A stretch of 64,000 nucleotides of DNA. It comes from Ruminiclostridium herbifermentans (lineage in GTDB: Bacteria > Bacillota > Clostridia > Acetivibrionales > DSM-1351). The stretch covers positions 558,001 through 622,000 of the forward strand of contig NZ_CP061336.1 in assembly GCF_005473905.2 (NCBI RefSeq), in the 5' to 3' direction. Shown here one piece after another: positions 42,758 to 48,014 of this stretch. Position numbers and translations under genes: made by a program. Below the pieces are notes generated by a model. That model saw only the letters and a list, made by a program, of their open reading frames with translations, did no database searches and was not told the origin of the DNA. Every line of letters begins with the position of its first letter. Within the stretch, counting starts at the first letter, position 1.

Positions 42758-43126
42758 GTTCATCATAAAAATAATACATTATTTTCTTAGAAATGTAAAA
42801 GGTATTGGGAAAACTAAATTAATTATAGATTTAAACACACTTGCACATAAAATAGTATATGACGCCTAAAGGATAAATATATTCAAAATATAAGTCTTGA
42901 TTAATAAATTTCCGAATGTTAATATGAATTTGAGTGAAATTATTCGGAAATTATTATATAATAATAAATGTTGTTGTATAAATTTTTGGTTTGAGATATT
43001 ATCAATTATATATCAGTGTAGTAAGGTAAAATTTGATACTTACAACGGCTTGATAACTTATTGTTCATATGTATGTACTGACAGCAGACATTATATAAAT
43101 GCAAACTATAGATTTGAGGAGATAAA

Positions 43127-43942
43127 ATGGATAAGATCCAACGAAACGAAAGACTTACAATTATAATGAAGACATTATGTGATAATCCCAATAAGATTTT
43201 TACTTTGGGTTATTTTTCTGCAATGTTCGGTTCGGCTAAATCTACAATTAGCGAGGATTTGGACTTTTTACAGAAAACTTTTCAAAAAAATTCATTGGGA
43301 AATATTATAACTATAGCTGGTGCTTCTGGAGGAGTCAAATATGTTCCTTATATGAATGAAAATGATATTCAGTTAACACTTGATGAACTTTCAAAGGAGT
43401 TATCAAAACAAGACAGAGTACTGCCTGGAGGCTACCTTTATATCCTTGACATTATATATAACCCTGAATGGGTGAATAAAATTGCTATGATATTTGCAAG
43501 CAAATTTTATAATTTAGAATTAGATTATGTGATAACTGTAGAGACTAAAGGAATTCCTCTAGCATTTGCAACTGCTCAGTACTTGGATGTTCCTCTGGTA
43601 ATTGTAAGGCACTATAATGTAGCTACTGATGGAGCGTCTGTGAATATTAACTATCTTTCAGGCTCATCAAAAAAAATACAGACCATGGTACTTCCTGTGA
43701 AGTCATTAAAGAAAAATTCCAAGATATTGTTTATTGACGACTTTATGAAGGGTGGAGGCACATCAAAAGGTATTATTGAAATGGCACATCAATTTGAAAG
43801 TGAAGTAGTTGGTATTGGTGTACTTATTGAAACAAATCAACCTGAAAAGAAGTTGGTAGATAAATATTACTCATTAGTTACCTTAAATTCGTGTCTGGAT
43901 TTCCAAGAGGATACAGAAATTGACATAAAACCAAGTAAATAG
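43127..43942 (+). CDS. purR: Pur operon repressor PurR
   Basis: 271-residue purine repressor of Gram-positive type. An N-terminal winged helix (about 1-75, with [17 protein letters not shown]) joins a phosphoribosyltransferase-fold effector domain. The PRPP-binding loop [18 protein letters not shown] near 201-218 is intact, so PRPP can act as inducer. [15 protein letters not shown] and VIVRH-like VIVRHYN are also family residues. The order purR-spoVG-glmU-prs is conserved in Firmicutes. GAGGAG ribosome site. Confidence 0.95.
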
Positions 43943-44073
43943 ACAGTATTCCGCAAAATTCAAGTAATTTTTTAAGATTATATTGCAAAATTTCATTTAA
44001 AAAAGAAGGAATGTATGAATTATTGGCGAATATTAGATATAATCACATAATATTTCTTGGAGGTTTTGCCATT

Positions 44074-44325
44074 ATGGAAATCACAGACATTAGAATTAGG
44101 AAGATTGAAACAGAAGGAAAAATGAAAGCAGTCGTATCAGTAACATTTGATAACGAATTTGTTGTGCATGACATTAAAATTATTGAAAGCCAGAACGGTT
44201 TGTTCATGGCGATGCCAAGTAGAAAGACACCTGATGGTGAATTTAGAGATATTGCGCATCCAATAAATGCACAAGCAAGAGAAAAACTACAAAGTGCAAT
44301 ATTAGCAAGTTACGAAAACTTATAA
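44074..44325 (+). CDS. spoVG: Septation/sporulation regulator SpoVG
   Basis: 83-residue RNA- or DNA-binding regulator. [11 protein letters not shown] opens it; the highly conserved [37 protein letters not shown] lies in the middle. The ATG at 44074 follows TTGGAGG with 10 bases; upstream in-frame codons lack a ribosome site. 132 bases after purR; followed by a terminator. Confidence 0.96.
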
Positions 44326-44393
44326 GAAATTAGAATGAATTTAGGAAAGATTCAGGATAAGTTAAAAAGAATTTAGGGAAAATAGAAAATTAT

Positions 44394-44424
44394 AAAGGAT
44401 ACTTTTTTAGGTATCCTTTTTTTT
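44394..44424 (+). terminator. Terminator after spoVG
   Basis: AAAGGATAC-TTTTTTA-GGTATCCTTT followed by TTTTT. Confidence 0.92.
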
Positions 44425-44571
44425 AATGGCTATCTGAATTATCTTATGGAATATAGAAAATTGCACAACTTATATACAATTATGTTGAAATATTTAGTTA
44501 TAGTAATGGGTTGAAATTATTCTGTAAAAATGAGAGAATATATCCTGTAAAAACAAATGGAGGCTTTGACA

Positions 44572-45744
44572 ATGTATATAAGTTTAGGATTAGTTATTTC
44601 TGACAATAATGATTGTGATTTTAAATCAAAAGTTGCAAAAGAACACCATAATATTTTAGGACGAAGTGTCCAACAGTGGTCCAAAGTTCCATTAGAAGAA
44701 GTAACTAATAATATCCAATCTATCTCATTTCAGGATTTGGAGAAATGCAAAGAGATTCTAAGCCAAGCCCAGCAAGTGGTAATTAATTGGTCAGATCAAC
44801 CTTTGATTCTAGCAGAAACAGTTCAGCGACTGCTTACAATTCATATTGCTGAAGGAAATAATGCAACAGCTGTATTTGCTAGTGACGGGGAAGCAGTAGT
44901 GTATGCTTTTGATTGTAAGATTCTGATTAAGAAGCTAAATGAACTAAATATTTCAAGCCTTTCAAGAGATATTCTTAAAGATATTTTCAAAGTCACAGAG
45001 AAATCTAATAAAAGCATTTATGAGGATAAAAGCCAATTCTTAATAGTTAAGGATAGAGTAGCACTCTCTTTGGCAACAGAAGAAATCAAATCTAGGATTA
45101 ATCAACAAATAATGCTTTCCGGTGTTACAATTGTTGATCCATCATCTACGTATATTGATTATGGTGTTGAAATTGGTATGGACAGCATTATTTTGCCTAA
45201 TACCATTCTTCAGGGGAATACTGCTATTGGTGAGGATTGTACAATAGGACCTAATTCAAGAATTTCAAACTGTATTATTGGAAATAACGTAGAAGTAGCT
45301 AATTCAGTTGCTATTGACAGTTCTATCGGTGATGAAACTCATGTTGGTCCATTTGCATATTTGAGACCAGGCAGTGTTATAGGCAGCAAAGTTAAGATTG
45401 GTGATTTTGTAGAAATTAAGAAGTCTTTAATAGGAGATAAAACGAAAATTTCACACTTAACCTATATAGGAGATGCTGAGATAGGGAAAAATGTAAACGT
45501 AGGTTGTGGAGTTGTAGTAGTGAATTATGATGGTAAGCATAAAAATAAGACTATAGTTGAAGATAATTGCTTTATTGGATGTAATACTAATTTAGTTTCA
45601 CCAGTTATAGTTCATAGTGGTGCTTACACAGCTGCTGGTTCTACTATAACAGATGCTGTGCCTGAAAATTCATTGGCAATAGCTCGTGAACGTCAGGTGA
45701 TAAAGCATGATTGGGTTAGTAAAAAGGGTTTGACTCGAGGATAG
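44572..45744 (+). CDS. glmU: GlmU-like protein: acetyltransferase intact, uridylyltransferase degenerate
   Basis: 390 residues against about 455 for GlmU. The C-terminal left-handed beta-helix is normal: SGVTIVDPSSTYIDYGVEIG, the catalytic His in ISHLTYIGDAEIG near 300, NVGCGVVVVNYDGK and the final KHDWVSK region; it should make GlcNAc-1-phosphate from glucosamine-1-phosphate. The N-terminal domain has lost the nucleotide motif LAAGxGTRM (here LVISDNNDCDF), and the region normally holding GRIVR and the EYYLTD segment is about 60 residues shorter. WSDQPLILAETVQRLL still recalls the GDxPL strand. So UDP-GlcNAc synthesis probably needs another enzyme. ATG 44572 has TGGAGG 8 bases upstream. Confidence 0.9.
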   Translation: MYISLGLVISDNNDCDFKSKVAKEHHNILGRSVQQWSKVPLEEVTNNIQSISFQDLEKCKEILSQAQQVVINWSDQPLILAETVQRLLTIHIAEGNNATAVFASDGEAVVYAFDCKILIKKLNELNISSLSRDILKDIFKVTEKSNKSIYEDKSQFLIVKDRVALSLATEEIKSRINQQIMLSGVTIVDPSSTYIDYGVEIGMDSIILPNTILQGNTAIGEDCTIGPNSRISNCIIGNNVEVANSVAIDSSIGDETHVGPFAYLRPGSVIGSKVKIGDFVEIKKSLIGDKTKISHLTYIGDAEIGKNVNVGCGVVVVNYDGKHKNKTIVEDNCFIGCNTNLVSPVIVHSGAYTAAGSTITDAVPENSLAIARERQVIKHDWVSKKGLTRG

Positions 45745-45758
45745 CAATTTTGATGGTA

Positions 45759-45794
45759 TTAATATGATTAATAAATGAGTTTTAATCATATTAA
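45759..45794 (+). other. Hairpin after glmU
   Basis: TTAATATGATTAA (45759-45771) pairs with TTAATCATATTAA (45782-45794), loop 10. No U tract follows, so it is at best a weak terminator. TTAATCATATTA recurs at 45971. Confidence 0.5.
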
Positions 45795-45980
45795 TTATTG
45801 CAGGCTTGTTGACTTTTAAAAATATTTAGCTTTAGTTGAAATCACAAATTAGCAAATTTAGCTAGCTAAGAAAGCGGTTTTTACCACTGCCTCTGCTTAT
45901 TTTAAGATAACTTAAACTTTATGGCTGGTTAAATAATACTTACAATCAAAACAGAATATGATTTTATGTATTAATCATAT

Positions 45981-46203
45981 TACAGATATGCAAGAAAATG
46001 TCCTCCATTTCTATGAGTGGCGGGTATTTCTTGGCTTTTTAGGCGGTGAGGACTTTTCTCGCCTTACTTATGCGCCGATGAACATAATAGTTCGAAAATA
46101 AAGTATGTACGAATAAGGTGCATTTTCGAGCCACAAAAACCACAAGTGTTTTTTGACGGTGTATAAAATCGAAAAATTTTGTTTTGAATTTTGGCATTTT
46201 TAC
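45981..46203 (+). repeat. Structured intergenic element, copy D (before prs)
   Basis: Diverged copy: GCAAGAAAATGTCC matches copy B, followed by AGGCGGTGAGGACTTTTCTCGCCTT, GCGCC, a region with TTCGAAAAT and AAAATCGAAAAATTTTG hairpin arms, and the end TTGAATTTTGGCATTTTTA. The prs promoter starts at its right end. Confidence 0.7.
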
Positions 46204-46227
46204 AGACATTATAATATGGGTTATAAT
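46199..46227 (+). promoter_or_regulatory. Promoter of prs
   Basis: TTTACA (46199-46204), 17-base spacer, TATAAT (46222-46227), 43 bases before the prs ATG. The -35 overlaps the end of element D. Confidence 0.75.
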
Positions 46228-46269
46228 GAAAATAAATTAAAACATAGCGGTTAAAAAAGGAGAATTGAA

Positions 46270-47229
46270 ATGAATTTGCATGGAAAGGACATAAAAATAT
46301 TTGCAGGAAATTCAAATAGGGGATTAGTTAATGAAATTGCCGATAAAATAGGTATTCCTGTAGGTATTGCTAGTGTTGGTGGATTTAGTGATGGAGAAAC
46401 TGCTGTAAATATCGGAGAGGTGGTAAGAGGTTCTGACGTCTTTATTATTCAATCAACATGTCAACCAGTAAATGATAATCTTATGGAACTTTTAGTTATG
46501 ATTGACGCAGTTAAAAGGGCTTCTGCTGGTAGAATTACTGCCGTTATACCATACTTTGGATATGCAAGACAAGACAGAAAAGCAAGAGCTAGGGATCCTA
46601 TTTCAGCTAAATTAGTTGCAAATTTGATTACTACTGCAGGTGCAGACAGAATATTGACAATGGATTTACATGCTCCACAAATTCAAGGTTTTTTTGATAT
46701 TCCAGTGGATCATCTATTAGGATTACCTATTATAGCAGAATATCTTAAAGAGAAATTTATAGATCATGACGATTTAGTTATTGTTTCTCCTGATGTAGGC
46801 AGTGTTACAAGATCTAGAAAAGTGGCTGAAAGACTAGAATGTCCATTAGCTATTATAGATAAGCGCAGACCTAAGGCAAATGTATCTGAGGTAATGAATA
46901 TCATTGGTGATATTAGAAATAAAAAATGTGTACTTGTTGATGACTTGATAGATACAGCTGGTACTATCGTTAATGGTGCAAATGCATTAATTGATGCAGG
47001 TGCAAAGGAAGTATATGCATGCTGCACACATGCTGTTCTCTCTGGTCCCGCTATTGAGAGAATACAAGCATCGGCTATAAAAGAGATGGTAGTTTTAAAT
47101 ACTATTCCATTAAGTGAAGAGAAGAAAATTGATAAGATAACAACATTATCAGTTGCAAGTATTTTGGCAGAAGCAATTGAAAGAATTTATGGAGATATAT
47201 CAATTAGCACTTTATTTACTCAGGTGTAA
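46270..47229 (+). CDS. prs: Ribose-phosphate pyrophosphokinase
   Basis: Makes PRPP from ribose 5-phosphate and ATP; PRPP feeds purine, pyrimidine, His and Trp synthesis, and is the effector of the PurR encoded upstream. 319 residues. Motifs: [51 protein letters not shown] (ATP loop), [18 protein letters not shown] (metal site), and the PRPP loop [18 protein letters not shown] near 218-235. AAAAAGGAG ribosome site. Confidence 0.97.
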
Positions 47230-47235
47230 ATTAAA

Positions 47236-47295
47236 AAAGTCAATTGCAGTTTAAAGCCATTGGCAGATAAATATAGAGATGACGTAATTGACTTT
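47236..47295. repeat. Inverted repeat after prs (AAAGTCAATT family)
   Basis: AAAGTCAATT (47236-47245) and AATTGACTTT (47286-47295) are perfect inverses with a 40-base loop. The same arms, extended to 16 bp, bound the segment 55476-55610. It may aid prs termination. Confidence 0.65.
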
Positions 47296-47303
47296 ACTTT
47301 TAT

Positions 47304-47369
47304 GGGTGGTTCTTATCTGACATAGCAACGTTGGTTTATCAACTTGTATTGTTTAGGAACCGCCCTTTT
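47304..47369 (+). terminator. Probable terminator before pth
   Basis: GGGTGGTTC (47304-47312) pairs with GAACCGCCC (47357-47365) across a structured loop, followed by TTTTAAAT. Confidence 0.55.
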
Positions 47370-47444
47370 AAATATGTAATTAAATAATGAAAAGCTATTA
47401 TATAGTAGTTATTAAATAGTTTTTTTAGGACTGGAGGTACTAAT

Positions 47445-48014
47445 TTGGAGGACATATTTCTGATTGTAGGTCTCGGTAATCCAGGTAATAAATATGAAAA
47501 TACCAGACATAATGTTGGATTTCGTACAATAGATTACCTTTCAGAGAAACATAATATAAAGCTTTCAAAGATTGGCTTTAAAGCAGTATATGGTGATGGA
47601 ATAATTGGAGAAACAAGAGTTATACTTGTTAAGCCTCAAACATTTATGAACTTAAGCGGTGAAAGTGTCAGAGAAATTGTGAACTGGTACAAGCTTTCAT
47701 TAGATAAAGTGATAGTTATATATGATGATATTGACTTAGAACCCGGTAAAATAAGGGTTAGACCAAAAGGCAGTTCTGGCTCTCATAATGGTATGAAATC
47801 TATAATATATCAGCTTCAAGCGGAAAACTTTCCACGGATAAGGATTGGCATTGGGCGTCCGCCTGAAAAGTGGGACCTTGCAGACTATGTGCTTAGTAAG
47901 TTCCCTAAGGAAGAATGGGAAATAATATTTAATAGTATTGAAAAAGCAGCTGAAGCAGCTATAATGATAACAAAAAGCGGAACTGAAAAGGCTATGAATT
48001 GTTATAACCACTAG
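47445..48014 (+). CDS. pth: Peptidyl-tRNA hydrolase
   Basis: Releases tRNA from dropped-off peptidyl-tRNA (SpoVC in Bacillus). 189 residues. VGLGNPGNKYENTRHNVGF at the N-terminus contains the catalytic His and Asn; KPQTFMNLSGESV, YDDIDLEPGKIRVRPKGSSGSHNGMKSI and the following RIRIGIGRP are standard. Start is TTG at 47445 with GGAGG 9 bases upstream. Lies between prs and mfd as usual in Firmicutes. Confidence 0.96.
   Translation: MEDIFLIVGLGNPGNKYENTRHNVGFRTIDYLSEKHNIKLSKIGFKAVYGDGIIGETRVILVKPQTFMNLSGESVREIVNWYKLSLDKVIVIYDDIDLEPGKIRVRPKGSSGSHNGMKSIIYQLQAENFPRIRIGIGRPPEKWDLADYVLSKFPKEEWEIIFNSIEKAAEAAIMITKSGTEKAMNCYNH

What the first reader, a model, noticed from the sequence alone, without database searches (positions are those of the whole stretch)
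44572..45744. GlmU at the canonical locus without a functional uridylyltransferase domain
Seen: the LAAGxGTRM nucleotide motif is replaced by LVISDNNDCDF, and about 60 residues of the catalytic half are missing, while the acetyltransferase half is intact. UDP-GlcNAc is essential for peptidoglycan, so known biochemistry requires another GlcNAc-1-phosphate uridylyltransferase. The gene remains in the conserved purR-spoVG-glmU-prs order, so the domain decayed in place or has a new role (allosteric or structural).
Basis: partly seen in the sequence, partly recalled or inferred. Interest (0 to 1): 0.68.

Follow-up and report, generated by a model that had tools for sequence, protein, structure and literature searches.

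The report
Half-dead GlmU across Ruminiclostridium

Summary
The gene at window 44572-45744 (390 aa) sits in the usual purR-spoVG-glmU-prs-pth-mfd order, has an intact acetyltransferase half, and lacks the motifs of a working uridylyltransferase half. It is no sequencing error: all 11 genomes held for the genus (Ruminiclostridium, inferred) carry only this form. Motif scoring separates intact GlmU (15-16 of 16 residues) from the genus (2-3 of 16) and reveals five further decayed cases, all metagenome bins. The leftover domain is still under purifying selection, but relaxed relative to intact relatives, and is predicted to fold.

Best candidate for the missing step: a 307-aa nucleotidyltransferase (PDB 3PNN family), outside the window, in 11 of 11 genus genomes beside a galE with the cysteine linked to N-acetyl sugars. 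In some members and other families the order is galE-NTase-nahK, a HexNAc salvage set. It recurs in two other decayed lineages and in 1 of 34 intact genomes examined (the order search adds three intact carriers, one a fragment, one probably a contaminant); a fourth decayed lineage has a eukaryote-type UAP instead. So a salvage uridylyltransferase probably displaced the GlmU domain. GlmR, the main rival, is also in 11 of 11. No activity has been measured.

The parts
44559..44563 (+). GGAGG ribosome-binding site for the ATG at 44572
   Evidence: sequence
44572..45744 (+). glmU-like gene, 390 aa: degenerate uridylyltransferase domain plus intact acetyltransferase domain
44572..45034 (+). residual N-terminal Rossmann-like domain without the nucleotidyltransferase motifs
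   Evidence: motif scoring; predicted fold (pLDDT blocks 82-95 over residues 11-180) and structural comparison; purifying but relaxed selection
45121..45744 (+). left-handed beta-helix acetyltransferase domain, catalytic residues conserved
   Evidence: Pfam hexapeptide hits; invariant columns
43127..43942 (+). purR, conserved neighbour
   Evidence: name from sequence, recalled
44074..44325 (+). spoVG, conserved neighbour
   Evidence: name from sequence, recalled
46270..47229 (+). prs, conserved neighbour
   Evidence: name from sequence, recalled

Best explanation
GlmU in this genus is a monofunctional glucosamine-1-phosphate acetyltransferase carrying a dead, shrunken nucleotidyltransferase domain that is kept as a folding or assembly module (shown: loss of motif residues, genus-wide; inferred: loss of activity and the structural role). 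The GlcNAc-1-phosphate it makes is converted to UDP-GlcNAc by a separate 307-aa nucleotidyltransferase of the PDB 3PNN family, encoded beside galE at G000:C1:789568-790488, outside the window (inferred). That enzyme belongs to a HexNAc salvage set (galE - NTase - nahK), in which NahK makes GlcNAc/GalNAc-1-P, the NTase makes the UDP-sugars and GalE interconverts them (inferred from context). Once present it made the GlmU domain redundant and the domain decayed. The same displacement probably happened in at least two more clostridial lineages, and a UAP-type enzyme did the same in another.
For: Only degenerate GlmU in 11 of 11 genus genomes; no other GlmU in the window's genome, next-best hit 59.3 bits. 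NTase in 11 of 11 genus genomes at 81-100% identity; the AAGxGSRYGGLKQxD and NADD motifs are kept in all 15 members aligned, 8 of them first copies from the genus. galE lies beside it in 11 of 11, and all 11 carry a Cys that aligns with Cys307 of human GalE; human C307Y loses, and E. coli Y299C gains, activity on UDP-GalNAc (PMC6668579, passages). The neighbouring kinase of genus member G010 matches solved N-acetylhexosamine 1-kinases at E about 1e-93. Cross-lineage test on 44 genomes: NTase in 3 of 6 decayed lineages and 1 of 34 intact genomes (p 0.0076); NTase or UAP in 4 of 6 versus 1 of 34 (p 0.0008). The UAP genome is a natural parallel: decayed GlmU (3 of 16) plus an AGX1-like protein, E 4.6e-100. 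Ratio of N-domain to beta-helix omega: 3.3 in the genus, 1.0-1.2 in three intact groups.
Against: No activity was measured for this NTase family here and none was found in print (titles); its substrate is inferred from neighbours. Two decayed cases have neither NTase nor UAP: G064 (10 of 16 motif residues kept, perhaps not dead) and G067 (2.2 Mb metagenome bin). All five decayed cases outside the genus are metagenome bins (titles). In the order search the NTase also occurs with an intact uridylyltransferase half in G042, G049 (same genome as G069), G041 (NTase a fragment at a contig end) and G016 (3.7-kb contig, probably contaminant). nahK is not beside the NTase in the window's genome and was not sought elsewhere in it; it is beside it in only 3 of 11 genus genomes (plus a second NTase copy in G009). 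Fisher tests are not corrected for phylogeny, the lineage count of six is a working number, and I chose 34 of the 69 scored intact loci. GlmR is also in 11 of 11.
Confidence: 0.6

Rival explanations
1. GlmR (YvcK), an accessory uridylyltransferase of Firmicutes, is the sole source of UDP-GlcNAc here, and GlmU keeps only acetylation.
For: One GlmR over cut-off in each of 11 of 11 genus genomes, all with a DD pair that I take to be the published catalytic pair; I did not align them to a characterised GlmR and did not test its third residue. Purified Listeria, S. aureus and B. subtilis GlmR make UDP-GlcNAc from UTP and GlcNAc-1-P (PMC10128056, abstract and passages); B. subtilis is inferred to rely on it alone on one medium (PMC13046274, passages).
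Against: It is described as accessory to an intact GlmU in those species, so its presence alone does not explain why the domain decayed here. Its distribution in decayed versus intact genomes outside the genus was not tested.
Confidence: 0.2
2. GalU or the 826-aa NTase-betahelix-phosphohexomutase fusion has broadened to GlcNAc-1-P and covers the step.
For: Both have nucleotidyltransferase domains over cut-off in the window's genome. Long frames of the fusion's kind (638-868 aa) are in 11 of 11 genus genomes, though only the window genome's, and of that the first 607 aa, was examined.
Against: GalU scores as an ordinary GalU (407.1 bits over a cut-off of 326.8); the fusion scores nearest mannose-1-P guanylyltransferase (253.1 of 440) and archaeal GlmU (215.2 of 292.1), both below cut-off. 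Their distribution in decayed versus intact genomes was not tested.
Confidence: 0.12
3. The shrunken GlmU domain still makes UDP-GlcNAc with a rebuilt active site.
For: The domain is under purifying selection (omega 0.16-0.18) and predicted to fold well; a DQPL motif at the metal-binding Asp column is kept in all 11 genus sequences.
Against: The nucleotide loop is replaced and the Q, GT, GR and N columns are deleted; selection is relaxed relative to the beta-helix compared with intact relatives.
Confidence: 0.05

Closest known systems
GlmU (TIGR01173, bifunctional UDP-GlcNAc diphosphorylase / GlcN-1-P acetyltransferase)
   Same: Locus, acetyltransferase half, overall predicted fold (best structural matches are GlmU structures)
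   Different: Uridylyltransferase motifs lost, about 70 residues shorter, below the family cut-off
PDB 3PNN family nucleotidyltransferase ('conserved domain protein')
   Same: The 307-aa candidate matches it over nearly its full length, E 4.3e-90
   Different: No published function found: the 5 papers listed for the term 3PNN are unrelated by their titles
Bifidobacterial lacto-N-biose pathway (NahK, GalT, GalE)
   Same: HexNAc-1-kinase and broad GalE acting together
   Different: There a GalT-type enzyme does uridyl transfer (PMC6668579, passages); here a UTP-using NTase is inferred
Eukaryote-type UAP/AGX1 (PF01704)
   Same: Appears as the alternative uridylyltransferase in one other decayed-GlmU genome (G051, the same as G066)
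   Different: Not found in the window's genome or in the 11 genus genomes
GlmR/YvcK
   Same: Makes UDP-GlcNAc in other Firmicutes (PMC10128056); present here
   Different: Described as accessory to an intact GlmU, not as a replacement

Membership tests
GlmU (bifunctional) | Nucleotidyltransferase loop and active-site residues | tested here: not met
   3 of 16 motif columns kept versus 15-16 in intact GlmU
GlmU (bifunctional) | Left-handed beta-helix acetyltransferase with conserved residues | tested here: met
GlmU (bifunctional) | Score above the curated cut-off of TIGR01173 | tested here: not met
   307.1 vs 366.85 bits
GlmU (bifunctional) | Canonical locus next to prs | tested here: met
GlmU (bifunctional) | Both enzyme activities | not testable with these tools
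   needs assay
HexNAc-1-P uridylyltransferase (307-aa NTase outside the window) | Nucleotidyltransferase domain and conserved motifs | tested here: met
   PF00483 31.7 bits over cut-off 21.2; motifs conserved in 15 aligned; 3PNN match
HexNAc-1-P uridylyltransferase (307-aa NTase outside the window) | Activity on GlcNAc-1-P with UTP | not testable with these tools
   inferred from galE and nahK neighbours
UAP (PF01704) | PF01704 match in the genome | tested here: not met
   0 of 11 genus genomes; the same search finds it in G051 and weakly in G029, though in none of its 14 control genomes
GlmR (TIGR01826) | Family match over cut-off with a DD motif | tested here: met
   11 of 11

The most novel reading that the evidence does not exclude
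The 3PNN-family NTases are a further, uncharacterised class of bacterial GlcNAc-1-P uridylyltransferase. In Ruminiclostridium such an enzyme, recruited from HexNAc salvage, is the essential last step of UDP-GlcNAc synthesis, and GlmU is reduced to an acetyltransferase; this displacement has happened repeatedly in Clostridia.
Probability: 0.5. Interest if true: 0.65.

Novelty: new variant of a known kind. Interest (0 to 1): 0.52.

Why it matters
GlmU is studied as an essential bacterial drug target with two activities in one protein. A cultivable genus that seems to have lost one of them offers a direct test of which enzyme can replace it (the salvage NTase or GlmR), would give a function to a protein family that has a solved structure but no published role that I could find, and warns that calling this gene 'bifunctional GlmU' would hide a missing step.

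Tried and rejected
Second GlmU in the genome: none. UAP in the genome: none; that search rang in none of 14 controls and proved nothing alone, but the order search found UAP in G051 and weakly in G029. An IspD, guanylyltransferases, a cytidylyltransferase-like gene beside neuB-like genes, GlgC/GlgD types and a 312-aa NTase among radical-SAM-like genes were looked at and set aside as having other likely roles (names from sequence, recalled). RNA element at the locus: no Rfam match at 43000-47500. Literature: the ten searches listed no report of this loss, judged from titles and abstract starts; two searches showed 20 of 66 and 15 of 35 papers. Passages were seen of PMC10128056 (abstract too), PMC13046274, PMC6668579, PMC10311766, PMC3423634 and PMC555942; none was read whole. 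My first motif expression missed the GKRM form of the loop and was replaced by column scoring. The tree has weak deep support, so six decayed lineages is a working number (L095 and L037 could be one); L082 and L034 were dropped from it because prs was not found, L043 was left out of the scoring, and L173 was read by eye. Omega values rest on unsaturated pairs only (e.g. 17 of 36 and 28 of 36 in the genus, 4 of 10 in one intact group), and one search used 9 of the 11 genus sequences. Counted by genome rather than lineage the NTase test gives 7 of 10 versus 1 of 34 (p 2e-5), which ignores relatedness. One search's control did not ring in B. subtilis, where GlmR is known, so that search can miss members. 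The structure was predicted on an alignment holding intact relatives, which may favour their fold.

Full report
What is there. The gene at 44572-45744 lies between spoVG and prs. Its acetyltransferase half is conserved, but it misses the glmU family cut-off. In a 16-column motif count over 119 GlmU rows (some genomes appear twice), 98 rows keep 15 or 16 columns and 21 keep 1 to 10; the window protein keeps 3. The alignment shows internal deletions as well as a replaced loop. The window's genome (4.82 Mb, one contig) has no second GlmU. The nearest named relative is Ruminiclostridium sufflavum, 75% identical, so the host is inferred to be a Ruminiclostridium.

How old. 11 of 11 genomes held for the genus have the shortened form only (the family search returned the same 11). 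In the order, 35 of 58 genomes pass the cut-off, but that count includes G055 and G040, which the motif count shows as decayed (as L037 and L056); I had loci for 30 of the genomes that pass. A FastTree tree of the C-half plus Prs puts the genus in one clade (support 1.000, 78 rows). The loss is therefore ancestral to the genus.

What the leftover domain does. It evolves under purifying selection: median omega 0.161 for residues 6-112 and 0.054 for the beta-helix (33 and 43 of 55 pairs unsaturated). In three intact groups the two halves are nearly equal (0.078/0.072, 0.099/0.096, 0.091/0.074); in 9 genus sequences they are 0.181/0.055. Synonymous changes are near saturation, so these are rough. 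AlphaFold2 gives a compact N-domain (pLDDT blocks 82-95 over residues 11-180), though pTM is 0.53 and the C-terminal end is poor. GlmU structures lead by Foldseek (E 4.4e-10) and by VIA-align (Z 26.9, rmsd 12.9 over 378 residues, so the two domains do not fit rigidly together); the N-domain alone fits IspD at Z 17.9, rmsd 2.2 over 170. I read this as a folded remnant kept for structure; that is inference.

Who makes UDP-GlcNAc. Ten NTP_transferase hits in the genome (the last below cut-off) include GalU, GlgC/GlgD types, the 826-aa fusion and a 307-aa protein beside galE. The latter matches PDB 3PNN over nearly its length (E 4.3e-90) and GalU only weakly. It is in 11 of 11 genus genomes; of the other 47 genomes of the order 7 have strong hits, E 2.1e-42 or better (G016, G041, G042, G049, G052, G055, G056). 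Of these, G055 has a decayed GlmU, G052 and G056 have no GlmU hit at E 1e-40 (85% and 88% complete), and G042, G049, G041 and G016 have an intact uridylyltransferase half. The G016 hit lies on a 3.7-kb contig whose neighbours look foreign to me.

Context. In G049, G052, G055, G065 and in genus members G001, G008 and G010 a kinase with the NahK motif lies beside the NTase; in G056 it is seen in the ORF list; G042 has galE and NTase only. The G010 kinase matches solved N-acetylhexosamine 1-kinases at about 1e-93. A second NTase copy in R. sufflavum (G009, the same genome as G058) sits in galE-NTase-nahK-SIS-ROK-PIG-L, an amino-sugar set. galE is beside the NTase in all 11 genus genomes and carries the Cys in all 11, and in all 9 GalE proteins aligned; it aligns with Cys307 of human GalE. 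That residue governs activity on N-acetylated UDP-sugars (PMC6668579, passages). This points to HexNAc-1-P as the NTase substrate.

Test across lineages. Five other decayed GlmU proteins turned up among the 80 named loci, all from metagenome bins: L102 (1 of 16), L095 (3), L037 (5), L082 (5) and L056 (10). I searched their genomes, five Ruminiclostridium, and the genomes of 34 of the 69 scored intact loci. NTase: 5 of 5 Ruminiclostridium, G063 (L037), G065 (L082), none of G064 (L056), G066 (L095), G067 (L102), and 1 of 34 intact (G069). UAP: only G066, 1 of 44, next to a GHMP kinase and a phosphohexomutase. With Ruminiclostridium as one lineage: NTase 3 of 6 against 1 of 34, p 0.0076; either enzyme 4 of 6 against 1 of 34, p 0.0008. 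Several of these are the same genomes as in the order search (G063=G055, G064=G040, G066=G051, G069=G049, and the five Ruminiclostridium), so the two searches are not independent.

Rival. GlmR makes UDP-GlcNAc in vitro in other Firmicutes (PMC10128056) and is present in 11 of 11 with a DD pair. It may share the load or carry it. It does not by itself explain the pattern across lineages, but its distribution outside the genus was not tested.

Verdict. The finding is real and genus-wide among the genomes held; the gap is probably filled by a salvage-type uridylyltransferase. What is shown is sequence, distribution and context; the activities are inferred.

Noticed in passing
L242:1762-2508 (G036); also G034, G035, G037-G039: Mirror image: in one family of the order the glmU locus next to prs encodes only the uridylyltransferase half (about 250 aa) and the acetyltransferase half is missing. 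Seen at the locus in G036 and, partly masked, in G034 (L235); the others by match range only.
   Followed up: partly
L223:2009-3013 (G041): A GlmU of 334 aa that lacks the last part of the acetyltransferase beta-helix, in the same family as the half-GlmU genomes.
   Followed up: no
L240:919-1659 and L241:1348-2079 (G033, G025): A stand-alone GlmU-N-like nucleotidyltransferase directly after a GHMP-kinase-like gene, in genomes that also have a full GlmU; a GHMP kinase also lies beside the UAP in G051 (L211). These look like kinase-plus-uridylyltransferase salvage pairs.
   Followed up: partly
L238 (G058, same genome as G009, R. sufflavum): Second copy of the 3PNN-family NTase in a galE-NTase-nahK-SIS-ROK-PIG-L cluster.
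   Followed up: partly
L005 (window genome) and the long frames of G001-G010: An 826-aa NTase-betahelix-phosphohexomutase fusion in the window's genome; frames of 638-868 aa with similar matches in the ten other genus genomes (not examined further). Archaeal-GlmU-like score below cut-off.
   Followed up: partly
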